Below, piece by piece: positions 14,612 to 31,584 of a stretch of DNA of 64,000 nucleotides. The stretch lies in NCBI RefSeq assembly GCF_964222135.1, contig NZ_CAXQBR010000065.1, forward strand, positions 1 through 64,000, given 5' to 3'. The translations under genes and the position numbers were made by a program. The notes under the pieces are model-generated. The model saw only the letters and a list, made by a program, of their open reading frames with translations, did no database searches and was not told the origin of the DNA. This stretch comes from Euzebya sp. (GTDB lineage: Bacteria > Actinomycetota > Nitriliruptoria > Euzebyales > Euzebyaceae). Position 1 is the stretch's first letter; each line of letters starts with the position of its first letter.

Positions 14612-14635
14612 AGTCGGGATGCAGGGATTTGAACC
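14612..14635. repeat. attL core (24-bp direct repeat, left copy)
   Basis: Identical over 24 bp to 31561-31584, starting AGTCGGGATGCAGGG. It copies the 3' end of tRNA-Pro but is followed by unrelated sequence, so it is the partial att copy. Confidence 0.9.
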
Positions 14636-14650
14636 ATGCGCATCCCGTCC

Positions 14651-14745
14651 CGACTGGTCATGTCTGATGCCGCCTAATGGCCCTGACCTGCGCGTTTGCC
14701 ACCGACTGGTCACGTCTGGTGTCGCCTGCTCACGTGTGGTTTCGC
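14651..14745 (+). repeat. Three imperfect direct repeats beside attL
   Basis: The pattern CTGGTCAYGTCTGRTGYCGC occurs at 14654 and 14706, with a weaker third copy at 14726 (17 of 20 positions matching the second). Position just inside attL suggests arm-type integrase sites or excisionase sites (inference). Confidence 0.55.
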
Positions 14746-14770
14746 GTGGCTCGGTGACAACGCGGCTACA

Positions 14771-15442
14771 TCAATCCGGCGAACGGACCGTATAACCCAT
14801 CGCCTCCAGCTGCTCCACCGCGGCGTCGGGATGCCGGCGGACGGCTGCCCGTGTCTGGCGGTGCAGCCAGTCGCCACGAGACTCCCCGAGTGCCTGCCGC
14901 CAGCCCTGGTGGGTGTCGGTGATCAGGCGCTCCTGGTGGAGGAACTCGATGAAGTCCTCCAGCGTCGGCCGGAACCGCCGGTCGCCGAGGGGGATGTGGA
15001 GCTTGTGGAGCGGCCGGAGCTTGCTGCCAGCGGCGGCGTACGCGAAGCCCAAGCCGGCGGAGTCACCGGTGATGTGGAGGTGGGCGGCCTGCTTGCCGGG
15101 CTCGTCGCGGTCGTACTCGATGCGGATGGGGCAGAAGTTCGTCCGCGGGTCGACGCAGAGACCCATCACCGAGGAGTGCACCGCCAGGTGCTGGCCCTCG
15201 GCATCCATCGTCGTGGAGAACCGCACACGCAACCACAGCGGCGCCTGCTGCCGGTCTTCGACATCATCGGCAGTCGACAACGGCAGCAGCGGGTGGGTCT
15301 TCAACACCTCACCGGGAGGGCGAACGATCGCCAAGCCATCGACGAGCGTGACGTGGAACACGCAGTCGCGGGTGACCGTCGCGTTGACCAGGTCGGTCAG
15401 ACGGGCCGCGAACGCCTCGGCTTGATCCTCGAGCACCCCCAC
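14771..15442 (-). CDS. Cassette-2 large protein, paralogue of 13460-14065
   Basis: 223 aa, GTG start 11 bp after the stop of the small gene. Shared family features: IRIEYDRDEPGKQAAHLHI in the middle, LHIPLGDRRFRPTLEDFIEF, then HQGWRQALGESRGDWL and VRRHPDAA. The conserved His residues and the RRFRP-LED block could form an active or nucleic-acid-binding site, but I know of no characterised member. Lies just inside attL, while its paralogue lies just outside. Confidence 0.7.
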   Translation of the reverse strand: MGVLEDQAEAFAARLTDLVNATVTRDCVFHVTLVDGLAIVRPPGEVLKTHPLLPLSTADDVEDRQQAPLWLRVRFSTTMDAEGQHLAVHSSVMGLCVDPRTNFCPIRIEYDRDEPGKQAAHLHITGDSAGLGFAYAAAGSKLRPLHKLHIPLGDRRFRPTLEDFIEFLHQERLITDTHQGWRQALGESRGDWLHRQTRAAVRRHPDAAVEQLEAMGYTVRSPD

Positions 15443-15452
15443 GCGGGGGAAG

Positions 15453-15644
15453 CTACCGGAACAGCGGCGCCACCATCAGCCAGAGGTCGTCCAAGGGCTC
15501 CTCGAGGTCCCCGCTGCGACCCCGCTCGATGAACTCGTCAAGGGTCAGATCGGAGACGCTCGAGATGGCCTCACGGAGTTCCTCGTCGAACTCCTCGCGT
15601 GGCACGTGGTGGGTGACCACGCCTGCGGTGGCTGCCGGACTCAT
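15453..15644 (-). CDS. Cassette-2 small acidic protein
   Basis: A 63-aa protein (EEFDEELREAISSVSDLTLD, then LDDLWLMVAPLFR), ATG with GGGGAG upstream. It occupies the same slot as the 61-aa protein of cassette 1 but is not obviously similar to it. The promoter has CGGGTACAAC ~30 nt before the start. Possible antitoxin or chaperone of the 223-aa partner (inference). Confidence 0.6.
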   Translation of the reverse strand: MSPAATAGVVTHHVPREEFDEELREAISSVSDLTLDEFIERGRSGDLEEPLDDLWLMVAPLFR

Positions 15645-16054
15645 CACGTCTCCCCTTCCATGCACGTAGTTGTACCCGAACTCTTGACAGTAGGGAACGG
15701 GTGCGACATCAACCCCCGGCAAGGTCGCATCTAGTCCCGCCCCGTCCCATCCGGTACGATGGTGCGGCCCGAGGAGGCGGCAACCTCCCCGGGCCCGGCC
15801 GAAGCCGGCCGGATCCTCCCTAGAAGGACCCGACGCGATGAGCGTAGACGCACGTGGTGCACCCAGACCGTTCTTGGCGTGTCCGGAGCGGCCCCTGTAG
15901 GCCGCCGTGTCACTGCTGGGCCCGCGGGCCCCACCATGCTCCCCCCTCTCGCCGCGCAGGCCGGGGCATATCGCCCTGGCCGAGCGCACACACACTCGCC
16001 CGGACACGACCGCGGCAACGGTCACCGGGCTCCTGCCCTAGAGAGGAGCCAGCC
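15645..16054. promoter_or_regulatory. Divergent region between cassette 2 and the plus-strand HTH operon
   Basis: 410 bp. Plus-strand TACGAT (15754-15759) is a good -10. Two strong adjacent GC hairpins follow (about 15766-15795 and 15795-15811). A 20-codon open frame (15838-15900) with AGAAGGA upstream may be a leader peptide but has no other support. Confidence 0.4.
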
Positions 16055-16957
16055 ATGCCCACCCCGCACGCTCACGACCAGGACCACGTCGATGGTCCAC
16101 CAGCACCGCCCCTTGCCCATCCGCCGGTGGAGCCGCCGGCGCGGCCGTTCACGATGCAGCCGCCGCGGCGGGAGGGTGACCCTGCTTCCGCCCCCACCAC
16201 CGACCAGGACCGGCTGCAGATGGCCCTGCGGGCGCTGAACGACGCCCGGGCCGGCCTCGACAACCGGCATCCCGAGACGGTCCACAACCCGCACCCGAAC
16301 GACCTCGACCGCGCCCGCCAGGTCCTCGAGGCGGCCATCGATGTGGTGCGGGCCACGACGCGAAACGTGATCGAGCCCATCGATGTGCGCGATCCTGGCC
16401 GCGAGCGCGAGCTCGTGGAGGAACGCCTCGGTGTCCACGCGGCGCACGTGATGGACCTTCTCCCACCAGGCGCGGGTGCGGTCGTGGCCACGGCCGTGCG
16501 CGGCCACCGGTTCCGCGACGGCACCCCGGGGGTCTACGTCGAAGGCCGGTACGGCGCCGAATGGGAGCACCCCGAGGACATCAGCGAGTCCGGCTGGGCC
16601 ACGGTCACCTACTCAGTACAGGCCGAGCCGGACCCCGAGGCCCCTGACCAGATGCCCATCGCCCACATCGAGGGGTACGCCCCCCGGGCAGCCCTCGCAG
16701 GTCTGGCCGCGCACGTCAAGGGCCAGGACGACCGCCTCGACTCGATCGTCGAGCAACTGGACTACCTCCGCGCCGCACTCAGCCAGGGCACGACACAGCT
16801 GGCGCTGGCCGGCGTGGACCCGCGACGGCTGCCGCGCCGGAGCGTGCGGAGGATGATCCACGGCCCCGAGATCGCGGCCATGCTCGACCACGAGACCGAA
16901 TCGGGGACAGGCCAGCCGCTTCCCGAAGACGCCCTGACCCACGCCGAGGACCTGTGA
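16055..16957 (+). CDS. Hypothetical element protein
   Basis: 300 aa, ATG with GAGAGGAG upstream. The first ~55 residues are Pro/His-rich and disordered. Residues ~60-120 are helical. Residues ~125-215 include YVEGRYGAEWEHPEDI and a beta-rich stretch. The C-terminal third is helical with DDRLDSIVEQLDYLRAALSQ. No known domain recognised. It overlaps the next HTH gene by 4 bp, so the two are translationally coupled. Confidence 0.6.
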   Translation: MPTPHAHDQDHVDGPPAPPLAHPPVEPPARPFTMQPPRREGDPASAPTTDQDRLQMALRALNDARAGLDNRHPETVHNPHPNDLDRARQVLEAAIDVVRATTRNVIEPIDVRDPGRERELVEERLGVHAAHVMDLLPPGAGAVVATAVRGHRFRDGTPGVYVEGRYGAEWEHPEDISESGWATVTYSVQAEPDPEAPDQMPIAHIEGYAPRAALAGLAAHVKGQDDRLDSIVEQLDYLRAALSQGTTQLALAGVDPRRLPRRSVRRMIHGPEIAAMLDHETESGTGQPLPEDALTHAEDL

Positions 16958-17229
16958 CGCCTGAGGACATCCAGGCCGCCATGACGACGCTCGCCGAACT
17001 CATCGGCCACACCGTCGCCCGCGAGCTCCGTGGCGACGTGCAACGCCTGCTGGTGCCTGCGGAGAACGACGTGCTCGAGGGCATCGAGGACATCGCGACC
17101 TACCTGACCCTGTCGCCGGCACACGTCGCACGGCACCTCGGGTCCACGATCCCAGCCCGCAAGGTCGGCCGCTCCTGGCTCGCCTCGAAGGCCGCACTCA
17201 CCGCGTGGCTGGCCGGCCGGGACCCCTAG
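16954..17229 (+). CDS. HTH/excisionase-like DNA-binding protein A
   Basis: 91 aa, GTG overlapping the upstream stop. N-terminal helices, then a winged-HTH half: IATYLTLSPAHVARHLGSTI followed by the wing-like PARKVGRSWLASK. It is a clear paralogue of 17480-17752, with the shared block GSTIPxRKVGxxWLASKxA. Likely regulates excision or transcription in the element (inference). Confidence 0.6.
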   Translation: MTPEDIQAAMTTLAELIGHTVARELRGDVQRLLVPAENDVLEGIEDIATYLTLSPAHVARHLGSTIPARKVGRSWLASKAALTAWLAGRDP

Positions 17230-17240
17230 GGTCCGGTCGC

Positions 17241-17483
17241 ATGATCGAACTCACAACCAGCACTCGCGCCGTCGACGTCCGTCCGTACTGGGGCCACCCC
17301 CAGGTAGCCGACTACATCGGCGGCGTCTCCACCGACACCGTCCGGAACCTGGTCCTGGCCGGTTACCTCGACGGCCTCCGCCTCCCCGGAGTCAAGCGCA
17401 ACGTGGTGACCGCCGAGTCTCTCGACCGGTACCTCGCCAGGGCCCGCGAGACCGCGGAGCTCACCCGGATGGTCTCGCAGTGA
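17241..17483 (+). CDS. Excisionase-like (HTH_17) small protein
   Basis: 80 aa with a MerR/excisionase-type fold: HPQVADYIGGVSTDTVRNLV then GLRLPGVKRNVVTAESLDRY. The ATG is 8 nt downstream of TAGGGT (17227-17232), so it may also be made from a leaderless transcript. Middle gene of three tandem HTH genes. Confidence 0.6.
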   Translation: MIELTTSTRAVDVRPYWGHPQVADYIGGVSTDTVRNLVLAGYLDGLRLPGVKRNVVTAESLDRYLARARETAELTRMVSQ

Positions 17484-17752
17484 CCTTGCAGGACTCGCAC
17501 CCGGCCACAGCCGACTTCGCCAGCCTGGTCGGCCGCGCCGTCGCCGACGAACTCCGCGACGCCGTCGCCTCCGTCCTCACGCCAGTGGAGCACGACGTCC
17601 TCGCGGGCGTGGAGGCCATCGCCGTGTACTGCGGGCTGTCCGAGAGATTCGTCCGCGACCACATGGGCTCGACCATCCCGGGTCGGAAGGTCGGTACGAA
17701 GTGGCTCGCGTCGAAGGTCGCGATCACCGCCTGGCTGGCCCGCCCAACCTAA
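17480..17752 (+). CDS. HTH/excisionase-like DNA-binding protein B
   Basis: 90 aa, GTGA overlap with the previous gene. Paralogous to protein A: AVYCGLSERFVRDHMGSTIP then GRKVGTKWLASKVAITAWL. Two copies flanking an unrelated HTH gene imply duplication and divergent target sites (inference). Its end overlaps the convergent toxin gene by 4 bp. Confidence 0.6.
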   Translation: MTLQDSHPATADFASLVGRAVADELRDAVASVLTPVEHDVLAGVEAIAVYCGLSERFVRDHMGSTIPGRKVGTKWLASKVAITAWLARPT

Positions 17753-18162
17753 TCCGGGGGCTCGAGACCCTCGTCGGGCACGGGCTCGACGTGTCCCTTG
17801 AGTGATCCGGCGAGAGCTCCTACGGAGTAGGTTCCCTGGGCCACCTCAACGACGAGGTCAGCGAACTCGTCCTGATCGATGGTCATGCGGTAGCCGCATC
17901 GCCTGTAGAAGGCGACGCACGCGACCAGGGCCGTGCGCTTGTTGCCGTCGAGGAATGCGTGGCTGCGTGCGATGGCGTGGAGTGTGGCCGCGGCCTGGTC
18001 GTGGACCGTCTGGAACACAAGTTCCCCGAAGGCACTCGATGCCGGCCTAGCCAGCGCGCTCTCGAGTAGTGGTCGGTCACGGAGCCGGCCAGGGCCGATG
18101 ATGGCCTCGTTGATCTGGAGGACCTCGTCCACGCTGAGGAACGGCCAGGGCGGTCCGTTCAC
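17749..18162 (-). CDS. doc: Doc-family toxin (Fic fold)
   Basis: 137 aa with the Fic/Doc core HAFLDGNKRTALVAC (HxFxDGNKR). Doc kinases inactivate EF-Tu by phosphorylation. N-terminal LSVDEVLQINEAI and GRLRDRPLLESALARP are typical Doc motifs. The GTG start overlaps the antitoxin stop (GTGA). Probably stabilises the element or acts against phage. Confidence 0.88.
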   Translation of the reverse strand: MNGPPWPFLSVDEVLQINEAIIGPGRLRDRPLLESALARPASSAFGELVFQTVHDQAAATLHAIARSHAFLDGNKRTALVACVAFYRRCGYRMTIDQDEFADLVVEVAQGTYSVGALAGSLKGHVEPVPDEGLEPPD

Positions 18163-18386
18163 TCGTCGGCCAGGCGATCGAGGGCGGCCCGGTACTGGTC
18201 CTTGGCGTCGCTGACCAGCTGATCGAACTCTTCACGGCGACCGGGGCCCGCGAGGAAGTCACGGAGCGCCCGGCGGACGACGTCGTTGGCCGACGTGTTC
18301 GTGATCGAGGCGAACCGCTGCAGAGCGACGTGCTCCTCAGGTGTGAGGCGGACGAGGACCTGCTTCGACGTCGTGCTGGTAGCCAT
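18159..18386 (-). CDS. Ribbon-helix-helix antitoxin of the Doc module
   Basis: 75 aa. The N-terminus SKQVLVRLTPEEHVALQRFA is a ribbon-helix-helix DNA-binding motif, and the C-terminal acidic helix (EEFDQLVSDAKDQYRAAL) would wrap the toxin. It lies upstream of and overlaps doc. Palindromes in its promoter suit autoregulation. Confidence 0.8.
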   Translation of the reverse strand: MATSTTSKQVLVRLTPEEHVALQRFASITNTSANDVVRRALRDFLAGPGRREEFDQLVSDAKDQYRAALDRLADE

Positions 18387-18433
18387 GCGGCTATACTATC
18401 ACTGATATCATCATCTGAGGGAGGGCTGAACCC
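18387..18433. promoter_or_regulatory. TA / sce7725 divergent operator
   Basis: An AT-rich island in GC-rich DNA. TATCACTGATA (18397-18407) is a perfect palindrome and overlaps a second one, TGATATCA (18403-18410). Minus-strand TAGTAT can serve as the antitoxin -10. Probable binding site for the ribbon-helix-helix antitoxin (inference). Confidence 0.5.
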
Positions 18434-19480
18434 ATGAACCGCGACGACCTGCACTACGTGCCGATGCTGCGGGGCAAGCGCGCTGAACTCAGCGCCCTTT
18501 CCACCTCGGGTCACCTGACCACGATGACCCCGCTGGTCGAGCTGCAACCCATCGAGGGTGAGGTCCCGTCCACGGTTGTCGCCAAGCGCGTCAACGACAT
18601 CCTGCAGGCCTGGTACCGGCCCCTGTTCCTCGACGTCCAGGGGGCCTTCGACGACAGCGACGTGGACCTGGCCGACGGCTACAACCTCGTCCGCCGTGCG
18701 GCCCAGTCGATCGCTGAGGACCTGCCCGTCCCTGAGCCGATCCCGGTAGTCGACATCGCGTCACCCGACGGGTTCCTGGCCGCCGTCCGGGTGGCGCTGA
18801 GCGAGGATGCCGGTCCGGACGAGGTCTGCATCCGCCTGCGCGCCGATCACGTCGAGCGGCCGGTCCAACTGCGCAACCGTCTCGAGACCCTGGTGCACAC
18901 CTTGGGGGCTACGCCCGAGCAGGTGCACCTGGTCCTGGACCTGGAGAGCACGGTCAACGTCGCCTTCGCGGAGATGTTGACCATGGTGGTCCCTGCTGAG
19001 GAGTGGGGCGGCTACACCCTGGCCTGGGGCGCCTTCCCGACACAGCTGGGCTCAGAGGAGGAGCAGGTCCACGGCCGGCACGACTGGACGGGCTGGGTCG
19101 ACATCCACGATGCCCTGCGGATGGACAACTACCGCGCCCCAGGGTTCGGTGACTACTCGATCGTGGCCGCGAGCCCACCCCCATCGGTGCCGCGTGCCCC
19201 GAACCCGAACCTGCGTGTCACCCGTCATCTCGACTGGCTCGTCATGCGGGAACGGCGGACCGCCCTCGAGGGCAACGAGGCGATCTACCGGGTCGCCCAG
19301 CGTCTCGTCGGGCACGTCGATGAGGGTCTCTCTGCCGGTGACAGCTGGGTCATCGAGCACGCCCGCGGAGACGGCACGACTGGGAACGCGACAACATGGA
19401 TCACAGTCGGGCACCAGCGGCACTTCGCGTTCGTCACCGCACAGCTAGCCAGCCGCGGCGGTTCTTCAGTACCCCTGTGA
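18434..19480 (+). CDS. Beta-family / sce7725-like protein
   Basis: 348 aa. The start YVPMLRGKRAELSALS and TPLVELQPIEGEVPS match the 'beta' protein/sce7725 family first seen in phages and mobile islands. The family pairs with sce7726 proteins, and its role is unestablished. Family proteins have a TIM-barrel-like pattern, and repeated beta-alpha units are visible here (LFLDVQGAF, VHLVLDLES, YTLAWGAFP). It is convergent with and overlaps the sce7726-like gene by 47 bp. Confidence 0.7.
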   Translation: MNRDDLHYVPMLRGKRAELSALSTSGHLTTMTPLVELQPIEGEVPSTVVAKRVNDILQAWYRPLFLDVQGAFDDSDVDLADGYNLVRRAAQSIAEDLPVPEPIPVVDIASPDGFLAAVRVALSEDAGPDEVCIRLRADHVERPVQLRNRLETLVHTLGATPEQVHLVLDLESTVNVAFAEMLTMVVPAEEWGGYTLAWGAFPTQLGSEEEQVHGRHDWTGWVDIHDALRMDNYRAPGFGDYSIVAASPPPSVPRAPNPNLRVTRHLDWLVMRERRTALEGNEAIYRVAQRLVGHVDEGLSAGDSWVIEHARGDGTTGNATTWITVGHQRHFAFVTAQLASRGGSSVPL

Positions 19481-20075
19481 CCAGTGGCGAGAGCTCAGGG
19501 AGGTCGTAGACGTCGGCCAGCCGGCGCCACAGCACCCTCCGCGGCTTGCTGCGCACTCCAGTCACGCCCGCCAGGTCCAGCAGGCTCAGGCACTCGTCAC
19601 GCCACAGGAGTTGGGCGACCCACACGGACTCCTGATCGGGGTTCTCCGTTGCGGAGCGGACCTCGGCCAGGTCGACATGGACGCCGTCGCCGGTGGCTTC
19701 CCAGACGCCCCACCATGGCGGGACGACGTCCATGGCCTGGTCAAGGTGTCGAGGCGTGCACACGATCGTCATGCGGTCGACCACACGGCCGTAGGCCTGG
19801 ACCTGACCGTCGAGGCGGGCGAGGGTGTCCCGGTCGCTCTTGATCTCGTACCCCTCGAGGTGGCCGTTCAGCCGGGCTGCATCGAGGCGTGCGGTGCCGC
19901 CGCAGACCGGCATCTCGAACACGACGCGGTCGCCGTCGCTCAGCTGCTCGTCGAGGCGGCTGTGCAGCGCGGCGCGGATCGGCGGGTCGCTGAGCCGGGT
20001 CATGGCGCGCTCATCGTAGAGGGTGACACCCACAGAGCGCGTAGCGTCACCGGGAGGTAGCTGTGCGCTACTCAT
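19434..20075 (-). CDS. sce7726-family protein
   Basis: 213 aa. Conserved block DPPIRAALHSRLDEQL, followed by a nuclease-like core: LNGHLEGYEIKSDRDTLARL (E-x-K, reminiscent of PD-(D/E)xK folds), then QVQAYGRVVDRMTIVC. ATG 20075 overlaps the upstream stop (ATGA). An internal ATG at 20003 fits the usual family N-terminus. It is the last gene of the long minus-strand operon. A nuclease role is inference from the ExK motif. Confidence 0.7.
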   Translation of the reverse strand: MSSAQLPPGDATRSVGVTLYDERAMTRLSDPPIRAALHSRLDEQLSDGDRVVFEMPVCGGTARLDAARLNGHLEGYEIKSDRDTLARLDGQVQAYGRVVDRMTIVCTPRHLDQAMDVVPPWWGVWEATGDGVHVDLAEVRSATENPDQESVWVAQLLWRDECLSLLDLAGVTGVRSKPRRVLWRRLADVYDLPELSPLVTGVLKNRRGWLAVR

Positions 20076-20362
20076 GGGAACGGGATGACCCACGCGGAGT
20101 CGAGGTCGAAGCTGCCACCGATCGTCACGACCAGGCACGGCGTGTTCGCGGCGGGCGGGGCCGGACGGTCGTGGATGTGCCCTCCGGATCCGTCGTCGGT
20201 CTCGGCGGTAGCCGGCGAGGCGGGACGCAGGTAGCGGGCGGGCCCGCGGACACGGTCGGGCTGGTCGGCCAGCACGTAGTGGCACATGCCGTCGGTGGCG
20301 GCCGTCTTGATCCAGCCGGGCCGGAGTTCGGTGACCGAGGGCAGGCCGAGTGCGACTCGCAT
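20072..20362 (-). CDS. Small hypothetical protein downstream of tape measure
   Basis: 96 aa. N-terminal beta-like segment (VTELRPGWIKTAATDGMCHY), low-complexity Pro/Ala middle, C-terminal hydrophobic strand. Coupled by overlap to the sce7726 gene. Position after the tape-measure gene suggests a tail-associated or cargo role. Not recognised. Confidence 0.5.
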   Translation of the reverse strand: MRVALGLPSVTELRPGWIKTAATDGMCHYVLADQPDRVRGPARYLRPASPATAETDDGSGGHIHDRPAPPAANTPCLVVTIGGSFDLDSAWVIPFP

Positions 20363-25388: not shown

Positions 25389-25504
25389 GCGGGCACCTCT
25401 CGGCTGAGGTCCTGCTCGAGGCGGGCGAGGACGACCAGGTCCAGATCGGCGCGGGACAGCCCGACGGCCTCGAGGTACGCGTCCAGCGGAGTGGTGGTGG
25501 TCAT
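25385..25504 (-). CDS. 39-aa small protein
   Basis: A short acidic peptide (PLDAYLEAVGLSRADLDLVV) with ATGA overlaps at both ends, which is the main support. Function unknown. Confidence 0.45.
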   Translation of the reverse strand: MTTTTPLDAYLEAVGLSRADLDLVVLARLEQDLSREVPA

Positions 25505-25893
25505 GCCGCGGTCCCCTTCGCCCGCTCGATCGCGGCGTCCAGATCGGCAGGGTCGAAGCGAACCGCCCCGCCGAGCCGGACCGCCGGCAGCGACCCGTCC
25601 CGAACCCGGCGGCGCAGCGTCGACTCCGACAAGCCGGTCCGCGCCTCGGCGTCCGCGTAGGTCAGCAGTGTGGTCACACCGGCACCGTGCACCGCCGGCG
25701 GCGGCAGCGCCGGAACTTGACCGCTCCTGGCAGCAGATGACCGCAGTTGACCGATCACGTCGGCCAGACCGGCCGGATCCGGCAGCCCCGCGTCGACCAG
25801 CCGGCGCCGGTAGGCGGTGATCGCCGCGATCAGGTGGGCCGCCAGCGCGGGGGCGTGCTGGCCGGCGAGGAGCTCGAGGTCCAGGCGGCTCAC
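25501..25893 (-). CDS. MerR/excisionase-type HTH protein
   Basis: 130 aa. The N-terminal half is helical. The C-terminal ~55 residues are an HTH_17/excisionase domain: YADAEARTGLSESTLRRRVR, then GSLPAVRLGGAVRFDPADLD. GTG start overlaps the upstream stop. Likely an operon regulator rather than the excisionase, because another xis-like gene lies beside the integrase. Confidence 0.65.
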   Translation of the reverse strand: MSRLDLELLAGQHAPALAAHLIAAITAYRRRLVDAGLPDPAGLADVIGQLRSSAARSGQVPALPPPAVHGAGVTTLLTYADAEARTGLSESTLRRRVRDGSLPAVRLGGAVRFDPADLDAAIERAKGTAA

Positions 25894-26135
25894 GACGCAC
25901 CTGCCCGGCCAGGAACCACAGCAGCGGGGCGGGATGTCGGAACCTGTACGCGCATCTCCACTCCCACCCCGGCGGCATACGACCCCTCCCCCCGGAGGGG
26001 GGTCCCCCCACCCCTCTCGGCGGGCGCGGGTGTGGAGTCGGTGAACTGGCGGCACCAGCAGCGCCAGGCCGCGCACGGCTGTCCGAGAGCGGCGATCCAG
26101 TCGTGCTCGACGATGGTGTGGCCGCAAGTGCACAC
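25890..26135 (-). CDS. Zinc-ribbon-like small protein
   Basis: About 81 aa from GTG 26135: VCTCGHTIVEHDWIA then PCAAWRCWCRQF gives a CxCGH...C..CWC pattern suited to one metal site. Its stop overlaps the next GTG. The same frame stays open to an ATG at 26456 that overlaps the initiator gene stop, so a 188-aa form is possible. The extra part, however, lies antisense to a better-looking plus-strand gene. Confidence 0.45.
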   Translation of the reverse strand: MCTCGHTIVEHDWIAALGQPCAAWRCWCRQFTDSTPAPAERGGGTPLRGEGSYAAGVGVEMRVQVPTSRPAAVVPGRAGAS

Positions 26136-26198
26136 GGCCGGTCGCGGTGCCGTGGTGTGATCCGGGCGATCGGAAGCGTCGTGAGGAAGGACCTCGGC

Positions 26199-26378
26199 AT
26201 GTCGATCCTCTGGCTGTTCGCCGTCGCCCTGGGGCTGATCGTGGAGTACCTGCTGATCCGCGGGGCGGTGAAGGACGCACTCGGCCGGGCCCTGTATGAC
26301 AACCGGGAGTTCCTGCTGAGCCTGCTGCGCGAGGCCAACACTCTGGATGGCGAGCCGGGCGCGTCGGACCGGGAGTAG
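26199..26378 (+). CDS. Small single-pass membrane protein
   Basis: 59 aa, ATG with AAGGA 9 nt upstream. One transmembrane helix (SILWLFAVALGLIVEYLLI) followed by a charged helix. Codon use matches real genes here (nearly all codons end in G/C). It is the only plus-strand gene inside the minus-strand operon. Possible holin-like or superinfection-exclusion-type peptide (inference). Confidence 0.6.
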   Translation: MSILWLFAVALGLIVEYLLIRGAVKDALGRALYDNREFLLSLLREANTLDGEPGASDRE

Positions 26379-26452
26379 GCGTGCCGCTGACCGGTCATGG
26401 GTTTCATGCCCTGAGGGCGTCGGGGCGTCCGTGGTGACCGCCGGTTCGGTGG

Positions 26453-27493
26453 TCATGTGGTGCGCTCCTTCGGGTTGTTGCGGACCTTCGTGGCGTAGTG
26501 GAAGAGGCTGAGCGGGTCGGCGTTGTGGGGTGGGGTGAGACCGGCGCCGGACTCGACGGCGACGCGGATCGACTCGAGCGTGGCGATCGAGCCGGCTTCC
26601 TTGACGTGGCGGCCAAGGAGCGCCCAGCCCTCGGACGGCATGGGCTGGTCGGTGACGTACTCGAGGTAGTCGCCGATGACGACGCCGGCGCGGTTGCGGC
26701 CGCGGCGCTGCTGCTCGGGGGTGTCGGCGGGGAGCTCTCGGTGGAGGACGCCGATCAGCCAGCGGGCGACGTCGGAGCGGTTCTCGGTGTCGGGCGGCTC
26801 GTGGTCGTGGCGGATCGCCCACTCGGCGAGGGTTCGGCTGTAGGTCTGCCCGGTCCGGTTCCGCATCGGCAGCTCGTCGCCGCCGGCGGGGTCCTGGTCG
26901 GCGACGTCCTGGCGGTCGTCGTCGTCCGCGCCGTCGGCGCGATGGTCTTCTCGAGGGTCTTCTCGGTACTCCTCGGGTGGGGGGGTAGGGGTACCCCCCG
27001 GTTCCGGGGGGTGGGGGCACCCCCCGGTCGGTGGCTGTGCGACCCCCCGGGCGTCTGCCCGGGGGGCCAGGCCGCCCCCCTGGAGCGACAGGGGGGTCGT
27101 GTCGCCCCCCTGTCCGGGGTCAGACAGAGGGGTCAGGTCGCCCCCCTGTCCGGCTGGTGACAGGGGGGTGGTGTCGCCCCCCTGTGGGGGGAGGCCCACG
27201 ATGGAGCGGACCCGGCGGTGGCCACGGCGGGAGTGGCCGGGCTGGTAGCTGATCAGGCCGGCGTCGGCGAGGTCGTGGAGGGCGCGTCGGAGGTCGCGAC
27301 GGTCGATGCCGGTGAGCTGGCCGAGGCGGGCCTGGGAGACGGTGTCGGTGAGCCGGGACCAGGTCGCGGTCTCGTGCAGGATCGCGAGCAGCACCCGGTA
27401 CTGCCGTGGGGGCAGGGTCCGGGATGCGGCCGTGGCCATCACGGTGCGCATGGCGGCGCCCACCTCGGCGTAGGAGTCACGCGGTGGGGTCAT
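26453..27493 (-). CDS. Phage-type replication initiator (O-like), origin-bearing
   Basis: 346 aa. The N-terminal winged-helix (~10-90) resembles phage replication-protein-O N-domains: LPPRQYRVLLAILHETATWS, LGQLTGIDRRDLRRALHDLA, DAGLISYQPG. A repetitive linker (~100-200) carries GGDxTPLSxxGQ repeats. The C-terminal domain includes SRTLAEWAIRHDHEPP, RGRNRAGVVIGDYLEYVTDQ and LGRHVKEAGSIATLESI. The linker DNA is a hairpin array, recalling lambda O, whose gene contains the origin. ATG 27493 is chosen, and a GTG lies at 27508. Confidence 0.65.
   Translation of the reverse strand: MTPPRDSYAEVGAAMRTVMATAASRTLPPRQYRVLLAILHETATWSRLTDTVSQARLGQLTGIDRRDLRRALHDLADAGLISYQPGHSRRGHRRVRSIVGLPPQGGDTTPLSPAGQGGDLTPLSDPGQGGDTTPLSLQGGGLAPRADARGVAQPPTGGCPHPPEPGGTPTPPPEEYREDPREDHRADGADDDDRQDVADQDPAGGDELPMRNRTGQTYSRTLAEWAIRHDHEPPDTENRSDVARWLIGVLHRELPADTPEQQRRGRNRAGVVIGDYLEYVTDQPMPSEGWALLGRHVKEAGSIATLESIRVAVESGAGLTPPHNADPLSLFHYATKVRNNPKERTT
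26978..27186. repeat. Hairpin/G-tract array inside the initiator gene (candidate replication origin)
   Basis: Six inverted repeats with C6/G6 arms. Three 28-bp units at 27087-27114, 27123-27150 and 27159-27186 lie exactly 36 bp apart, each GACAGGGGGG / CCCCCCTGTC with an 8-nt loop ending GTCG (the second has one arm mismatch). Others: 26979-26998, 27004-27027 and 27043-27066 (10-bp arms, 4-nt loop). The 36-bp period keeps the reading frame. Confidence 0.75.
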
Positions 27494-27539
27494 GCGGGCC
27501 TCGGCCACGAACTCGGCGGTGGCATCGGGGTGTCAGCGG

Positions 27540-27830
27540 TCACGCCGCGGCGGGCTGGGCCCAGTGCTGGCGACCGTCGGCGTAGCCGCTGCTGTAGGCG
27601 GTGCGGAGCTTGGCCAGGTGCGTCAGCCACGCGGCCCGGACGTCGTCGGCCTGGTCGGTGCCGACGCCGGGCGCCGGCCGGGGCGTGGCGGGGTCGGGCA
27701 GCGTCTGGAGGAACCGGCGGGCGCGGTCGCCCATCTCGATCCGGTCCGGGAACGCGGCCGCGACGTCCTGACCGGCCCGGCGGGCGGCGGTGAGGGCGGG
27801 CAGGCCGGCGGTGTCGATCAGCCGCGTCAC
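27540..27830 (-). CDS. Small hypothetical protein
   Basis: 96 aa, GTGA overlap with the upstream gene. Helical, with MGDRARRFLQTLPDPATP and AAWLTHLAKLRTAYSSGYAD. Early-operon position before the initiator. Not recognised. Confidence 0.5.
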   Translation of the reverse strand: MTRLIDTAGLPALTAARRAGQDVAAAFPDRIEMGDRARRFLQTLPDPATPRPAPGVGTDQADDVRAAWLTHLAKLRTAYSSGYADGRQHWAQPAAA

Positions 27831-28192
27831 GGCTGCACCTCCCGGCCGATCCAGAGCCGGCAGACTCCGCGCCTCGCAGGGCGTCGGCTCACGGTGTAGC
27901 CGACAGGGCGGATGGTGCCCTCGCACTTGAGAGTGAGGAACACCCCGCCCATGGCCCACGGGCCGCCGGACAGCGTCGGCTGGTCCATGTCGAGACCCGC
28001 CTCGAGCGCGACCTCGCGAAGGTCGTCAGCGGTCCAGGGCGTCCGCCGGGTTCGGGCCAACTGGCGGCCGAGCTCGAGGAGTTGCGCTCGATCCGGAACG
28101 GACAGGGCCGCTAGGGCGTCGGCCGCCCGCTCGTCACGGACCGCAGCGGCAGACACTTCAACGGACGCGGTGTCAGCGCTACGCTGGCGCAT
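27827..28192 (-). CDS. Small hypothetical early protein
   Basis: 121 aa, ATG 28192 overlapping the previous gene by 14 bp. N-terminal helices with SVPDRAQLLELGRQLARTRR and a winged-helix-like WTADDLREVALEAGLDMDQP, then a beta part (GGVFLTLKCEGTIRPVGYTV). Possibly DNA-binding (inference). Confidence 0.5.
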   Translation of the reverse strand: MRQRSADTASVEVSAAAVRDERAADALAALSVPDRAQLLELGRQLARTRRTPWTADDLREVALEAGLDMDQPTLSGGPWAMGGVFLTLKCEGTIRPVGYTVSRRPARRGVCRLWIGREVQP

Positions 28193-28451
28193 GTCGACCC
28201 TCCTCGCCGGCCAGGTGAGTAGACGACTTCTCGCCCTCGCCGGTACCAGCGGCGGGGGCGTCGTCATGGACGGGGACACCCAGCAGGTGCAGCAGCCGAT
28301 GGGTCGGAACGACGAGCCGGCGGCCGATTCGGAGGGTCGGGATGTCGCCGGCGCGGGCGGCGTCGTAGGCGCTGTTGCGGCCGACGCCGAGGAGTTCGGC
28401 GGCCTCGGGCACGGTGATGGTGGCGCGTCCGCGGAGATCGGTCAGCGTCAT
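28179..28451 (-). CDS. Excisionase-family HTH protein
   Basis: 90 aa. TVPEAAELLGVGRNSAYDAA then GDIPTLRIGRRLVVPTHRLL is a textbook HTH_17 domain. The acidic C-terminal tail overlaps the next gene. The start overlaps the XRE gene stop (TGATG). Likely early regulator. Confidence 0.7.
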   Translation of the reverse strand: MTLTDLRGRATITVPEAAELLGVGRNSAYDAARAGDIPTLRIGRRLVVPTHRLLHLLGVPVHDDAPAAGTGEGEKSSTHLAGEEGRHAPA

Positions 28452-28699
28452 CACGCCGCGGTCACCTCCCGGAGGTCTGCCAGTAGGTCGACGTAGGCGA
28501 CCAGGTTCGTGGCGTTGGGCTGGGTCTTTCCGGTCTCCCAGGCCCACACAGCTTGCGGCGTCACCTGGATGGCTCGGGCGATCTCGGCGATGGACGCGCC
28601 GGCGGCCTCACGGATCCGCCGGCACTCCGCAGGAGGCGGAAGGGACTGACGTGCTCGGGTGCGCTTCATCAGCGCCGTTCGGGGTGTCATGAAGTGCAC
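28451..28699 (-). CDS. XRE-family transcriptional regulator
   Basis: About 82 aa (an internal ATG at 28669 is possible). Cro/CI-type HTH: CRRIREAAGASIAEIARAIQ, then VTPQAVWAWETGKTQPNATN. Too short for a self-cleaving CI repressor. It heads the minus-strand operon and is divergent from 28804-29520, with a candidate operator between. Confidence 0.75.
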   Translation of the reverse strand: MHFMTPRTALMKRTRARQSLPPPAECRRIREAAGASIAEIARAIQVTPQAVWAWETGKTQPNATNLVAYVDLLADLREVTAA

Positions 28700-28803
28700 G
28701 GTAAGGCCATGTCACCGCAGTGCCAACGTCCCAACATTGCCGTTCTTCTGTCCGGCAGGCAATGTAATTGACGCAGCATTACCTATGTGCGTATGGTCAC
28801 TGT
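28700..28803. promoter_or_regulatory. Regulatory switch region with operator and leaderless promoter
   Basis: Perfect inverted repeat ACATTGCC (28734-28741) / GGCAATGT (28758-28765), 16-bp spacer. Plus-strand promoter TTGACG (28768-28773), 18-bp spacer, TATGGT (28792-28797), ends 6 nt before ATG 28804, so transcription would begin at or near the A of the start codon. The repeat abuts the -35, a good place for repression by the XRE protein. Confidence 0.65.
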
Positions 28804-29520
28804 ATGGCCCGGTTTCAGTCCCAGCGCAGCGTCCCCGAGTTCACGCACCGCGAGGAGCACAGGGACGGCTACACCCACGTGCAGCTCCACTACGCGCTCC
28901 CGGGCGGCGTCGAACTGGGGATCCGCTATCGGAAGGAGTGGGGCGTGGAGGCCTACCCCCACCAGGAGTCGACGACCTTCCTGCCCCGGTTCTTCACCGC
29001 GGCCGTCGTCGACCCTGCGATCCCGTACGCCGTCAACGTTGAACTCTCATGGGACGGATCCGAGGTGGAGTGCACGGCCCTCAGCGTGCGGCCGCGCACC
29101 ATCCACCACGCGCCCGTGGCGTCTTCCGAAGACGAGGTGTACGACGACGGTGGGCCGATCTCGTCTGAGGGCCTCCGCCGAGTCCCGGTGAGCAGGGTCG
29201 TGAAGCTGGCCATCGAGGCGGCGACCCACACCGCCGAGAAGATCGACGGGGAGATGGTGCACGCCTTCTTCGCGACTCCGGACCTGCTGGCCACCTACGT
29301 CGCGGAAGGTCCGCGGACAGCCCGCGGCGTCGCCTTGGGCGATGACCACTACCGGGAGGTTGCCCAGGTGTACCTCGAGGCTGTGAAGGTCGGCGTGCCA
29401 CCCCGCCGCCAGGTGGCGGCGTGGGGATCCTGTTCGGAGTCGACGGCGTCGAAGTGGATTCGAGGCGCCCGCGACCGCGGGCACCTTCCAGCAACCACTC
29501 AGGGTCGAGCGTCTTCGTGA
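28804..29520 (+). CDS. HTH-containing regulator typical of actinobacterial integrative elements
   Basis: 238 aa. The first ~150 residues are beta-rich and unassigned (YTHVQLHYALPGGVELGIRY). The C-terminal part is an HTH: YREVAQVYLEAVKVGVPPRR, CSESTASKWIRGARDRGHLP. Similar proteins accompany XRE genes and tyrosine recombinases in actinobacteria (recalled, not checked). Likely leaderless mRNA. Its 3' end overlaps the convergent xis-like gene. Confidence 0.6.
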   Translation: MARFQSQRSVPEFTHREEHRDGYTHVQLHYALPGGVELGIRYRKEWGVEAYPHQESTTFLPRFFTAAVVDPAIPYAVNVELSWDGSEVECTALSVRPRTIHHAPVASSEDEVYDDGGPISSEGLRRVPVSRVVKLAIEAATHTAEKIDGEMVHAFFATPDLLATYVAEGPRTARGVALGDDHYREVAQVYLEAVKVGVPPRRQVAAWGSCSESTASKWIRGARDRGHLPATTQGRASS

Positions 29521-29723
29521 TCGGCGGCGTGCAACCAGCCCTGCAGGGGGACGCGGGGGATCAGGATCCGTCGTCCGGCGCGCCGGTTGGGCAGCTCGCC
29601 GCGGTGGATCATTCTGTAGACGACGCCGGGGGAGACGCGCAGGACCAGGGCGACCTCCTCGACGGTGAGGACGTCGGGGGCCGCGGCCAGGGAGAGAGGT
29701 TCGGTCGACATGATCGTGCCCAT
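29499..29723 (-). CDS. Excisionase (Xis-like)
   Basis: 74 aa. VLTVEEVALVLRVSPGVVYR then GELPNRRAGRRILIPRVPLQ is the excisionase HTH_17 domain. ATG 29723 directly follows the upstream stop (TAGATG), and ATG 29711 is an alternative. Position next to the integrase supports a role in excision directionality. Confidence 0.75.
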   Translation of the reverse strand: MGTIMSTEPLSLAAAPDVLTVEEVALVLRVSPGVVYRMIHRGELPNRRAGRRILIPRVPLQGWLHAADHEDARP

Positions 29724-30065
29724 CTACGAGAGTGGCTCGTCGAAGCGGACCTCGGGGTCCATCATCAGTTCGTTGTCCGGGAACCAGGGGTCGTCCTGGC
29801 CCTTGAGCACGATCTTGCGGACCGCGACGTGGCTGAGGCCGACAGCACGGCCGATCTCCCGGAAGCTGCCGCCGACTCGGTGGGCGTAGACGATCCAACG
29901 ATCGCGTGTCTCGACGGCACGGTCGGCGATAGCCGCCAGCTGGGCAGCGTGGGAGGCGTGGCTTTCGAGCTCCTCGGCCAGCGCAGGAGGCAGCGTCATG
30001 CCATCGAGCCTAGAAGCCGTCGCCTGGCTCCGTTCCTCGCCGGGAGCACCTGCATGAGTCGTCAT
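29724..30065 (-). CDS. HTH regulator beside integrase
   Basis: 113 aa. Central helix-turn-helix GGSFREIGRAVGLSHVAVRK (sigma-region-4/Hin-like), preceded by a long helix (LAEELESHASHAAQLAAIAD). Its ATG lies at the edge of a perfect 38-bp palindrome, so it may control itself and the divergent integrase. An internal ATG at 29999 is possible. Confidence 0.6.
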   Translation of the reverse strand: MTTHAGAPGEERSQATASRLDGMTLPPALAEELESHASHAAQLAAIADRAVETRDRWIVYAHRVGGSFREIGRAVGLSHVAVRKIVLKGQDDPWFPDNELMMDPEVRFDEPLS

Positions 30066-30102
30066 GGTAACCACGTTACCACATGTGGTAACGTGGTTAC
30101 CA
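30065..30102. promoter_or_regulatory. Perfect 38-bp palindromic operator
   Basis: Each half is TGGTAACCACGTTACCACA, itself two inverted GGTAAC half-sites, giving four half-sites in all. It sits between the HTH gene (29724-30065) and the integrase gene (30149). No other copy was seen in the window. Confidence 0.85.
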
Positions 30103-30148
30103 CAGGGCTTCTGCTGAAGGCCCTCAGGCAGACAGGTGAACCACGACC

Positions 30149-31471
30149 ATGAGCATCTACAAGCGCGGCAAGACCTACACGATCTCCATCGAGTTGGGCC
30201 GCGACGCCAACGGCAAGCGCCTCCGCCGGTACCGCCACGGCTTCCGCACCGTCAAGGAAGCCGGCGAGGCGCTGGTGCTGTGGAAGGCCGAGCTGATAGG
30301 GGGACGATTCGTCGACCCGACGAAGACCACGGTCGCCACGTACCTCCAACAGCACTGGCTGCCCTACAAGAAGCCCGCGCTGCTCCGACAGGCCGAAGAG
30401 GCGGTGGTGACGCGAGAGATCGACCCCCTAACCGACGCACCCGAACCCCAAGGCGGCGAGGTGGCCGTCACCTCCTACTGGGCCTACGAGCGGGCGGTCC
30501 GGATCCACCTCGTCCCTGCTCTAGGTGGCGCGCTGCTCCAGCAGCTGCGCGGCCGCCAGGTCGAGGACATGCTCCGCGGGATGCAGGACCGGGGCCTGTC
30601 ACCCAAGACCATGCACAACGTGTTCGGCGTACTGCACCGGTCGCTCGAGGATGCCGTCCGCTGGGAACTGATCGGCCGGAACCCTTGCGACACCGTCATG
30701 ATGCCGAAGGTGCCCAAGACGCCCATCACCAGCTGGAGCCTCCCTGAGCTCCGTGCCTTTCTGGCTGCGGTCAGGGACCACGAGTACGCCGGCGCGTTCA
30801 TGCTGCTGATCTCCACGGGCATCCGGCGCGGTGAGTTGAGCGGCCTCACCTGGCCGTGCGTCGACCTGGACCGCGAAGAGATCAGGGTCCGGTGGACCTT
30901 GACCCGCGGCAAGGGAGGCAGGATCTGGAAGGGTCCCAAGACCAGAGGCGGTGGCCGGACGATCGCGCTCGACTCCATGACGGTGCAGGCGCTGAAGGTG
31001 TGGCACATCCGGCAGGCCGCCATGCGACTGGCGGCCGGTCCCGCATGGCAGGTGCACAACGCCGACGACTTCGGCCAGGCCCTTCCCGACGTGGTCTTCA
31101 CCCACGCGGATGGAACACAGGTTGCGCCCGAGCGGTGGCTGAAGTGGTTGACGGACATCTGCGAAGCCAATGGCATCCGCAAGATCAGCGTCCACGACGT
31201 GCGACACACCTACGCCACCCTGGCGCTCGAGGCCGCCACCTCGATGGCCGACATGAAGCAGCTGTCCGACCGCCTCGGCCACGCGACGATCTCCTTCACC
31301 CTGGACAAGTACGCTCACGCGCTCCCCGACAAGGACCGGAAGCTCGCCCAGGACATCGCCGACCTCTACCACGGCGACGGGACGGTGCTCGACTTCAAGG
31401 AGGCGAAGCGCCGCCGTGACGCCGGCGACGAACTCGAGGATGGCACCGTCGAGGGCAACGCAGAACGGTGA
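30149..31471 (+). CDS. int: Tyrosine-type site-specific integrase
   Basis: 440 aa. N-terminal arm-binding domain (~1-60, GKTYTISIELGRDANGKRLR), SAM-like core-binding domain (~90-190), catalytic domain (~200-420). Catalytic residues: Arg in TGIRRGELSGL, HxxR in HDVRHTYATL, His in GHATISFTL and Tyr in LDKYAHAL. It catalyses integration into tRNA-Pro, ending ~90 bp from the right att core. Confidence 0.95.
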   Translation: MSIYKRGKTYTISIELGRDANGKRLRRYRHGFRTVKEAGEALVLWKAELIGGRFVDPTKTTVATYLQQHWLPYKKPALLRQAEEAVVTREIDPLTDAPEPQGGEVAVTSYWAYERAVRIHLVPALGGALLQQLRGRQVEDMLRGMQDRGLSPKTMHNVFGVLHRSLEDAVRWELIGRNPCDTVMMPKVPKTPITSWSLPELRAFLAAVRDHEYAGAFMLLISTGIRRGELSGLTWPCVDLDREEIRVRWTLTRGKGGRIWKGPKTRGGGRTIALDSMTVQALKVWHIRQAAMRLAAGPAWQVHNADDFGQALPDVVFTHADGTQVAPERWLKWLTDICEANGIRKISVHDVRHTYATLALEAATSMADMKQLSDRLGHATISFTLDKYAHALPDKDRKLAQDIADLYHGDGTVLDFKEAKRRRDAGDELEDGTVEGNAER

Positions 31472-31560
31472 GAGCCTCACTCGGCTACAGGATGGTGACA
31501 TGAACCGCCCCGAGTCCCCGCTCTGCGACAAGTTTTCGCAGGTCAGGGGCTCGGGGCTTA

Positions 31561-31584
31561 AGTCGGGATGCAGGGATTTGAACC
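31561..31584. repeat. attR core (24-bp direct repeat, right copy)
   Basis: Identical to 14612-14635. Here the repeat forms the 3' acceptor strand and T-arm of an intact tRNA-Pro, so integration left the tRNA functional. Confidence 0.9.

What the first reader, a model, noticed from the sequence alone, without database searches (positions are those of the whole stretch)
14612..31584. 17-kb tRNA-Pro element with tape-measure and HNH genes but no head genes
The boundaries are exact (24-bp repeat, integrase at one end, intact tRNA-Pro). The element has regulation, replication and one clear tail gene, yet no recognisable terminase, portal, capsid or lysis gene. The long overlapping operon shows little sign of decay: no frameshifts and tight ATGA overlaps. 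That favours a functional satellite or other reduced element over a rotting prophage.
Basis: partly seen in the sequence, partly recalled or inferred. Interest (0 to 1): 0.72.

Follow-up and report, generated by a model that had tools for sequence, protein, structure and literature searches.

The report
Headless phage-like element carrying tail genes
A 17-kb DNA element in an unnamed high-GC bacterium has the genes to insert, cut itself out and copy itself and no recognisable genes for a virus head, yet keeps the gene that sets phage tail length, so it may be a parasite of phages that builds hybrid tails, as was recently shown for cholera phage satellites.

Summary
The element is real and its edges are as stated: exact 24-nt repeats at 14612-14635 and 31561-31584, an intact tRNA-Pro and an adjacent tyrosine integrase. 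Among 29 proteins searched no large terminase, portal, capsid or lysis family appeared, and apart from a 300-aa gene (c) no unassigned coding ORF reaches 290 aa. TMP (658 aa, both ends kept) is 42% identical over 363 aa to the TMP of a contractile prophage in the same genome. Gene k resembles that prophage's gene between hub and gp25. Gene m sits in the tail-chaperone slot, with weak similarity to Phage_Gp15. The O-type replication gene holds palindromic iterons. Beta-family, sce7726-family and Doc genes sit beside the tail genes. The parts recall the TAC-TMP-hub set with which V. cholerae PLEs build chimeric tails (PMC12987554). A separate low-GC group of headless IMG/VR records also keeps a TMP (dN/dS 0.11 and 0.17). 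Best reading: a tail-hijacking satellite, probably actinobacterial (0.55); a deleted prophage remains possible. No relative of the whole element was found. Excision, packaging and helper use are untested.

The parts
14612..14635 (+). attR: distal copy of the tRNA-Pro 3'-end repeat (24 nt exact)
31561..31584 (+). attL: copy at the tRNA-Pro 3' end
31562..31636 (-). intact tRNA-Pro (cgg), integration site
   Evidence: ARAGORN; Rfam
30149..31471 (+). tyrosine integrase, 440 aa
   Evidence: phrog_1 E 3.7e-57
29499..29723 (-). excisionase-like HTH, 74 aa
   Evidence: TIGR01764 E 6.8e-13, above cut-off
28768..29520 (+). unknown, 250 aa
   Evidence: no PHROG or Pfam match
28451..28699 (-). XRE/Cro-like regulator, first gene of the long operon
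   Evidence: phrog_2104, phrog_4836, phrog_3
28179..28451 (-). HTH_17 DNA-binding protein (y)
   Evidence: PF12728 E 2.4e-10
27827..28192 (-). gene x; homologue in a 12-kb element of a same-genus genome (L025)
   Evidence: tblastn 50% over 44 aa, E 1.4e-7; 36% in alignment
27540..27830 (-). gene w, unknown
26453..27493 (-). phage O-type replication initiator (rep), 346 aa
   Evidence: phrog_678 E 2.3e-8; TIGR01610 E 8e-8, below cut-off
27057..27185 (-). palindromic iterons inside rep: three good copies (ACAGGGGGG-N8-CCCCCCTGT type) and a weaker fourth; candidate replication origin
26103..26378 (+). possible small membrane protein on the opposite strand, in the 559-nt gap of the operon
   Evidence: ORF composition, translation; no Pfam match
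25501..25893 (-). HTH_17 protein u, 130 aa
   Evidence: PF12728 E 8.4e-10
24062..24769 (-). gene q, 235 aa, predicted long helices with a low-confidence C-terminus
   Evidence: AlphaFold, single sequence: pLDDT blocks 67-98 over residues 11-160, below 50 after; no family match
23095..23460 (-). HNH endonuclease, 121 aa, of a type found in phages
   Evidence: phrog_144 E 3.8e-20; PF01844; 37% to the phi105 HNH gene
22733..23098 (-). gene n, 121 aa, orphan
   Evidence: only a sub-threshold Pfam hit (E 0.038), no PHROG
22344..22736 (-). gene m, 130 aa, in the tail-assembly-chaperone position; 1-nt stop/start overlap with TMP
   Evidence: weak similarity to the Phage_Gp15 group: hhalign E 0.0023, 33% over 49 columns; 8 of 5000 shuffles score as high
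20368..22344 (-). tail tape-measure protein, 658 aa, both ends kept
   Evidence: phrog_1535 E 7.2e-23; 42% over 363 aa to the TMP of prophage C30, alignment
20072..20362 (-). gene k, 96 aa, homologue of the small gene between hub and gp25-like gene in the contractile prophage C30
   Evidence: 33% over 94 aa, E 2e-8 against 48 C30 proteins; slot
19434..20075 (-). sce7726 family protein (PADLOC 'cll'), start overlaps the stop of k
   Evidence: NF033832 E 1.8e-42; PDLC02989 E 1.5e-26; also phrog_984 E 5e-30
18434..19480 (+). Beta protein family, defence-associated
   Evidence: PF14350 E 2e-41; PADLOC PD-Lambda-2_C E 4.6e-18, beta E 0.007
17749..18386 (-). Doc toxin and ribbon-helix-helix-like antitoxin candidate
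   Evidence: TIGR01550 E 9e-17; PF02661; antitoxin hits all below cut-off
16055..17752 (+). gene c (300 aa, unknown) and three small HTH proteins d, e, f
14771..15647 (-). genes a and b; a is related to a gene just outside the element

Best explanation
An integrative phage satellite that supplies part of a tail. Integrase and Xis excise it from tRNA-Pro; the O-type Rep starts replication at iterons inside its own gene and recruits the host helicase. It makes no head, sheath or tube, and takes these from a contractile-tailed helper of the kind of the C30 prophage. Its own TMP, with a chaperone candidate (m) and a baseplate piece (k), replaces the helper's, giving chimeric and probably shorter tails (658 against 788 aa). 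HNH and other genes may steer packaging; beta, sce7726 and Doc protect the host or block rivals. Shown here: element boundaries, gene content, absence of recognisable head genes, homology of TMP and k, iterons. Inferred: excision, replication, helper use, chimeric tails, role of m, packaging.
For: Exact att pair and tRNA integration with a likely empty site in a same-genus genome. int, xis-like and XRE genes present. O-type rep with dyad iterons; rep homologues of two other genomes of the class carry their own palindromic arrays in the corresponding region. TMP is full length. k is homologous to a baseplate-region gene of a contractile prophage. HNH-n-m-TMP overlap by 4, 4 and 1 nt, k follows TMP after 5 nt and overlaps sce7726 by 4 nt. 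m is in the TAC slot and scores best of the 31 window proteins given to a Gp15-like model, 17 of which were scored. PLEs use TAC+TMP+BhuB for chimeric tails, and a TMP that differs by 95 aa goes with tails 10 nm shorter (PMC12987554, section 8). A separate group of headless IMG/VR records keeps a TMP next to a conserved phrog_11299 gene: 10 of 15 examined loci have a TMP match; TMP dN/dS 0.11 and 0.17 in the two pairs of six that were not saturated. A 12.1-kb element in a same-genus genome has an integrase and an x homologue but, by my reading of its ORFs, no head or tail genes.
Against: No relative of the whole element was found: TMP in genome and viral contigs, int, k and rep in viral contigs and m, k and rep in phage records gave nothing; the wider TMP profile scans found TMP homologues only; m, q and rep-w-x in other genomes gave chance or partial matches. 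So selection on its TMP is unmeasured. TMP homologues elsewhere are usually in phage-like surroundings. m's similarity is not significant in an open search (rank 2 of 2274 ORFs, E 11); the model family was picked by motif after a first look; its structure model gave no reliable match. No shared word of 20 nt or more with C30 lies outside the TMP gene. No clear small terminase, capsid-size factor or confirmed helper. Open frames are weak evidence at about 73% GC. One member of the analogue group (L147) has its TMP frame broken in two.
Confidence: 0.55

Rival explanations
1. A defective prophage: a contractile-tailed temperate phage that lost its head block (between HNH and TMP), hub/wedge genes and lysis genes by deletion, and gained defence genes. 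It is a passive remnant whose remaining genes have not yet decayed.
For: HNH, TMP and k stand in the relative order they have in the C30 prophage, where an HNH-like gene (43491-43778, my reading) lies before terminase and the k homologue after the hub. TMP homologues elsewhere usually have large phage-like genes upstream and head genes where checked.
Against: Random deletions would not be expected to leave 4-, 4-, 1-, 5- and 4-nt coupled junctions along HNH-n-m-TMP-k-sce7726, with two intact orphan genes (n, m) in place of the head block. Apart from the integrases and small HTH genes, early genes do not resemble those of C30.
Confidence: 0.27
2. A satellite whose TMP and k are not built into its own particles but act as decoys: excess partial tail parts poison assembly of an incoming phage's tails and protect the host together with beta, sce7726 and Doc.
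For: Tail genes are followed, with a 4-nt overlap, by the sce7726 gene, with beta and Doc beside it. Interference with tail or virion assembly is a described defence strategy (PMC11364771 and PMC10884400, titles and abstract starts in the listing only; PLE11 Rta in PMC12987554).
Against: In PLEs the satellite TMP is needed for efficient transduction (PMC12987554); a full-length TMP with both ends kept is more than a decoy needs.
Confidence: 0.1
3. A non-phage integrative element (for example an actinomycete conjugative or mobilisable element) that picked up single phage genes by chance.
For: tRNA integration, Int/Xis/Rep organisation and defence cargo also occur in such elements (recalled).
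Against: No TraB/FtsK or relaxase family matched among the proteins searched; one weak NikA-like hit of the 75-aa antitoxin candidate is below cut-off. Rep is phage O-like.
Confidence: 0.05

Closest known systems
PLE satellites of Vibrio cholerae (PLE11, PLE1, PLE4), PMC12987554 (section 8 and passages read)
   Same: Integrated element with a TMP, an adjacent chaperone (or candidate) and one baseplate-type gene, without complete tail or head modules; its TMP differs in length from that of a phage in the same host.
   Different: Sequence homology to PLE genes was not tested; tyrosine integrase here; no known helper; the role of m is a weak inference and k is not shown to be a hub protein; no Rta or capsid-remodelling gene identified.
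Headless TMP-bearing IMG/VR records (L117, L132, L135, L136, L137, L142, L143, L144, L146, L147; phrog_32441 and phrog_11299 genes)
   Same: Integrase (in several), replication genes, TMP of the same broad family (phrog_1535 for L117) with a small conserved gene just upstream, no head family among the proteins searched in three of them, save a weak small-terminase hit in L117.
   Different: Low GC (0.38-0.43), probably Clostridia-type hosts (inferred); different replication genes (DnaC-like loader, primase); only part of the TMP matches the window's (31-39%, in 8 of the 10).
P4-like satellites (gop-beta-cII cargo), PMC9122126 (passages read)
   Same: A Beta-family and a 'cll'-model protein, small integrative element, own replication gene.
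   Different: No P4 alpha primase, Sid, Psu or Delta family matched; no gop found; carries TMP.
Pseudomonas AH14b (16.8 kb satellite of AH14a), PMC4936722 (passages read)
   Same: Similar size; prophage-like; own replication gene; a single tail-related gene (tail assembly protein I); no terminase or lytic genes.
   Different: Tail assembly protein I rather than TMP; primase-type replication; co-packaging with the helper was reported there.
Streptomyces satellites Mulch and Flayer, PMC10690885 (abstract and outline read)
   Same: Satellites of actinobacterial phages.
   Different: They encode encapsidation machinery and lack key replication genes; the reverse of this element.

Membership tests
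Phage satellite (general) | Integrates and carries its own excision and replication genes | tested here: met
   int, xis-like, O-type rep with iterons; activity not tested
Phage satellite (general) | Lacks a complete set of structural genes | tested here: met
   no capsid, portal, large terminase, sheath or tube match among the proteins searched; ORF size census
Phage satellite (general) | Is packaged in particles made by a helper phage | not testable with these tools
   needs induction or infection; no shared word of 20 nt or more with C30 outside TMP
V. cholerae PLE | Encodes TMP, TAC and a baseplate hub protein | tested here: inconclusive
   TMP met; k is a baseplate-region homologue but not shown to be BhuB; m only suggestive
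V. cholerae PLE | Large serine recombinase integration (recalled) | tested here: not met
   the integrase is a tyrosine recombinase
V. cholerae PLE | Induced by and transferred with phage ICP1 in Vibrio | not testable with these tools
PICI / cf-PICI | int, divergent regulator pair, replication module, small terminase or (cf-PICI) capsid genes (recalled) | tested here: inconclusive
   int, XRE and rep present; no capsid; only weak hits to terminase small subunit families; SatelliteFinder not available
P4-like satellite | alpha primase, Sid, Psu, Delta (recalled) | tested here: not met
   no such family matched among the proteins searched
Defective prophage | Truncated or frame-shifted genes | tested here: inconclusive
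   TMP full length against C30 and operon genes open, but genes were picked as open frames and most have no relative to measure against
Defective prophage | Intact phage relatives with the same early genes | tested here: not met
   none found for int and rep in the collections scanned; TMP alone has phage relatives
Actinomycete integrative conjugative element | TraB/FtsK-type transfer protein | tested here: not met
   no match among the 29 proteins searched in Pfam and/or PHROGs
Phage_Gp15 (PF06854) for gene m | Significant profile match | tested here: not met
   no Pfam hit at E 0.1; home-made model 4.3 bits, 8 of 5000 shuffles as high

The most novel reading that the evidence does not exclude
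Tail piracy with a satellite-encoded tape measure has arisen independently in several satellite lineages: in the Vibrio PLEs, in this high-GC, probably actinobacterial element with a chaperone-TMP-baseplate cassette aimed at contractile phages, and in a so far unnamed group of headless low-GC elements that keep a phrog_11299-TMP pair under purifying selection. Setting its own tail length is then a general satellite strategy, not a cholera speciality.
Probability: 0.4. Interest if true: 0.78.

Novelty: new variant of a known kind. Interest (0 to 1): 0.62.

Why it matters
[quoted passage not shown] its extended data show putative tmp genes in PLE-like elements and cf-PICIs. A headless element with TMP, a chaperone candidate and a baseplate gene in a distant high-GC lineage, plus a conserved headless TMP group in low-GC records, makes it testable whether tail reprogramming is widespread and why a satellite needs its own tail ruler. 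It also warns that small 'prophage remnants' with only tail genes may be working satellites.

Tried and rejected
Hidden head genes: Pfam, PHROGs and NCBIfam on element proteins gave no large terminase, portal or capsid. The largest unassigned operon gene q was modelled as long helices with a low-confidence tail; its fold was not searched. Fold search of m in PDB and BFVD gave nothing reliable (best Z 4.2 over 47 residues), so its fold is unassigned; that is no evidence against a chaperone.

Relatives of m: two weak genome hits look like chance. The G064 hit lies inside a 914-aa frame that reads as a CoA-ligase/acetyltransferase-like protein, and the G009 hit in a region of housekeeping-type genes (my reading). 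Relatives of q in 2 of 65 other genomes were weak (E 5e-5 and 1e-4); only short stretches around them were compared with the element, without another match.

Helper test by shared k-mers with C30: words above 18 nt all lie in the TMP gene. A Phage_portal (PF04860) search of the own genome gave 0 matches, though C30 has a Mu-type portal, so other prophages are not excluded. SatelliteFinder and HHpred were not available.

An actinomycete conjugative element and a P4-like satellite were considered and set aside (membership table). The library lacks most subscription papers and preprints. Read: PMC12987554 (section 8 whole, passages elsewhere), PMC4936722, PMC9122126 and PMC10023795 (passages), PMC10690885 (abstract and outline). 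My guess that the host is a Euzebya-like actinobacterium is recalled knowledge; no call names it.

The low-GC group was found because L044 was the only one of 50 loci with no large ORF upstream of TMP (recounts), so it was picked after the fact; the family searches then covered 10 proteins of L117, 4 of L131 and 6 of L132, not the other records.


Full report
Observation. The element exists as described. The 24-nt repeats at 14612-14635 and 31561-31584 are exact, the 18-nt core is found at these two places only in the window (up to 3 mismatches), tRNA-Pro is intact and the integrase is adjacent. In G003 of the same genus the tRNA-Pro has the same right flank nearby, and sequence next to it aligns with the window's distal repeat and the 54 nt outside it (74.7%, E 4e-9), as expected of an empty site.

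Anatomy. From the tRNA inward: integrase (+), xis-like (-), an unknown 250-aa gene (+), then a minus-strand operon XRE, HTH, x, w, rep, u, t, s, r, q, p, HNH, n, m, TMP, k and sce7726. An accessory arm follows: beta (+), Doc with antitoxin candidate (-), small HTH genes and gene c (+), b and a (-). Ten of 16 operon junctions overlap by 1-14 nt; three more are gaps of 2, 5 and 12 nt; the others are 46, 559 and 160 nt. None of the 17 genes has an internal stop, but they were picked as open frames and stops are rare at this GC, so this says little alone. sce7726, a 'cll'-model protein, overlaps the stop of k by 4 nt, so a defence-type gene is coupled to the tail genes.

Replication. Rep is a phage O-type initiator (phrog_678 E 2.3e-8; TIGR01610 E 8e-8, below its cut-off); no helicase gene was recognised. 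Its gene holds palindromic iterons, three good and one weaker, 30-36 nt apart. Rep homologues in two other genomes of the class (L024 34% over 213 aa, L026 30% over 162 aa) carry palindromic arrays of other sequence in the corresponding region. The arrangement resembles lambda ori inside gene O (recalled). I read it as an origin; activity is untested.

Tail genes. TMP matches tape-measure families (phrog_1535 E 7e-23) and is 42% identical over 363 aa to the TMP of a prophage on contig C30 of the same genome; the global alignment runs to both ends. C30 has a Mu-type portal, capsid, LysM and NlpC hub protein above Pfam cut-offs, and sheath, gp25 and terminase hits below them, so it is a contractile phage that looks complete. 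Gene k is 33% identical over 94 aa (E 2e-8 against 48 C30 proteins) to the C30 gene between hub and gp25-like gene. Gene m lies directly upstream of TMP, where phages keep tail chaperones (two named examples). Among 67 proteins collected from just upstream of TMP homologues, the best hits of m were Gp15-type proteins; the two of them searched are Phage_Gp15 in Pfam. A model of 17 of these, picked by motif after that first look, gives m 4.3 bits, the best of the 31 window proteins given to it (17 scored); 8 of 5000 shuffles do as well (4050 of them scored). hhalign gives E 0.0023, 33% over 49 columns; the best of the eight other proteins tried, q, has E 0.08. In an open search of 2274 ORFs m ranks second with E 11. 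So m as chaperone is suggestive, not shown.

No head genes. Twenty-nine proteins were searched in Pfam and/or PHROGs (not every protein in both). No large terminase, portal, capsid, sheath, tube or lysis family appeared; HNH and u have weak hits to terminase-small-subunit families and p an E 0.093 hit to Herpes_UL35, which I take as shared domains or chance. ORFs of 290 aa or more with coding-like composition are c, beta, TMP, rep and int, so a terminase or portal of normal size cannot be hidden in one intact gene, unless gene c (300 aa) is one.

Relatives. None of the element as a whole was found. TMP and int scans, k and rep alignments, m in 396 genomes of the phylum, q and rep-w-x in 66 of the class gave no syntenic match. 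The TMP profile found four places in three other genomes among 396 (G079 twice, G303, G387). Three neighbourhoods, one per genome, were fetched; by my reading two (L126, L127) have terminase, portal and capsid-type genes and the third (L125) is phage-like. Of 76 TMP loci with a clear frame, 50 have at least 7.5 kb upstream; 38 of these have two or more upstream ORFs of 300 aa or more, 11 have one, and 1 has none (size only). Two named Microbacterium phages show ordinary phage order.

Analogues. The one without large upstream ORFs, L044 (whole record L117, 14.8 kb; from the 63 IMG/VR loci), has a tRNA-Glu pair and integrase at one end, a repressor, DnaC-like loader, a weak small-terminase-like gene (E 2e-4), a 298-aa unknown, a 182-aa phrog_11299 protein and a 1001-aa TMP, with no large terminase, portal or capsid among 10 proteins searched. 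The record ends 0.3 kb after TMP, so what follows is unseen. Its genes led to further records. Of 15 loci examined (14 of the 15, without the short L134, plus L117), 10 have a TMP match: L117, L132, L135, L136, L137, L142, L143, L144, L146, L147 (records of 8.7 to 26 kb, some fragments). L147's TMP frame is broken into 702 and 250 aa; L141, L145, L140, L138 and L139 showed no TMP. Family searches covered L117 (10 proteins), L131 (=L136; 4) and L132 (6) only: primase, DnaC-like loader, sigma factor and unknowns, no capsid, portal or large terminase. TMP dN/dS is 0.106 for L132/L135 and 0.174 for L117/L131 (dS 1.9, near saturation); the other four pairs are saturated. For the phrog_11299 gene it is 0.088 and 0.075. 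So TMP is kept under purifying selection in elements without recognisable head genes. Hosts are unnamed; GC 0.38-0.43 and the names of TMP relatives suggest Clostridia.

A same-genus genome (G002) holds a 12.1-kb element between tRNA-Cys repeats with an integrase (31-32% over 295 aa to the window's) and an x homologue; by my reading of its ORFs, not by search, it also has an excisionase, an amidase and membrane proteins and no head or tail genes. Reduced elements with differing late cargo therefore seem to occur in this genus.

Mechanism. PMC12987554 (section 8) shows that V. cholerae PLEs encode TAC and TMP, PLE11 also a baseplate hub protein; that PLE11 virions carry the satellite TMP and hub protein in tails otherwise from ICP1; that these tails are 10 nm shorter with a TMP differing by 95 aa; and that deleting tmp cuts PLE11 transduction by about 99.9%. 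The present genes m, TMP and k are the same kinds of parts, in so far as m and k are read rightly, and the rest of the tail is absent. By analogy I propose chimeric tails built on a C30-type contractile helper, with a TMP 130 aa shorter than C30's. k is not shown to be a hub protein, and a shared packaging signal with C30 was not seen, so C30 itself may not be the helper.

Defence cargo. Beta matches PF14350 and PADLOC's PD-Lambda-2_C model, more weakly 'beta'; the adjacent gene matches sce7726/cll. PMC9122126 (passages) reports gop-beta-cII of P4 as an anti-phage system. No gop was found here. A Doc module is next to it.

Verdict. Observation confirmed; interpretation partly supported and extended. 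Most likely a tail-hijacking satellite of a new lineage (0.55); a recently deleted prophage is the main rival (0.27). Kind: new variant of a known kind.

Noticed in passing
L117, L132, L135, L136, L137, L142, L143, L144, L146, L147 (IMG/VR records): A group of records marked by phrog_11299-type and (most) phrog_32441-type genes that keep a TMP, mostly 900-1000 aa, with no capsid, portal or large terminase in the three searched; it may be an undescribed satellite family.
   Followed up: partly
L144:1-663 and L144:10598-10896: The TMP C-terminus lies at the start of this 10.9-kb record and the gene that precedes TMP lies at its end, as if the contig came from a circular or head-to-tail molecule with roughly 2.4 kb missing.
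   Followed up: no
L141:6205-7161: A member of the same low-GC group without TMP has a 318-aa gene whose start resembles a phage baseplate hub protein (my reading, not searched).
   Followed up: no
L147:8540-11511: The TMP frame is broken into ORFs of 702 and 250 aa in this record, a sign of decay or of a sequence error.
   Followed up: no
window 13460-14065 (-): A 201-aa gene outside the distal repeat is 31% identical (E 1.5e-20) to element gene a (14771-15442), hinting at an older integration at the same site.
   Followed up: partly
L025:4747-16855: 12.1-kb element at tRNA-Cys in a same-genus genome with an integrase, an x homologue and, by reading only, an amidase and membrane proteins, no visible head or tail genes: possibly a lysis-carrying satellite.
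   Followed up: partly
window 31757-31839: Two exact 32-nt repeats 51 nt apart just beyond the tRNA; similar sequences occur at many places of the own genome, with an array at G000:C67:4269-4653.
   Followed up: no
window 16954-17752: Paralogous HTH genes d and f (55% identical), both related to an HTH gene near the integrase of prophage C30 (47% and 44%).
   Followed up: no
G000:C30:27988-70009: Complete-looking contractile prophage near a tRNA-Met (27845-27920), candidate type of helper.
   Followed up: partly
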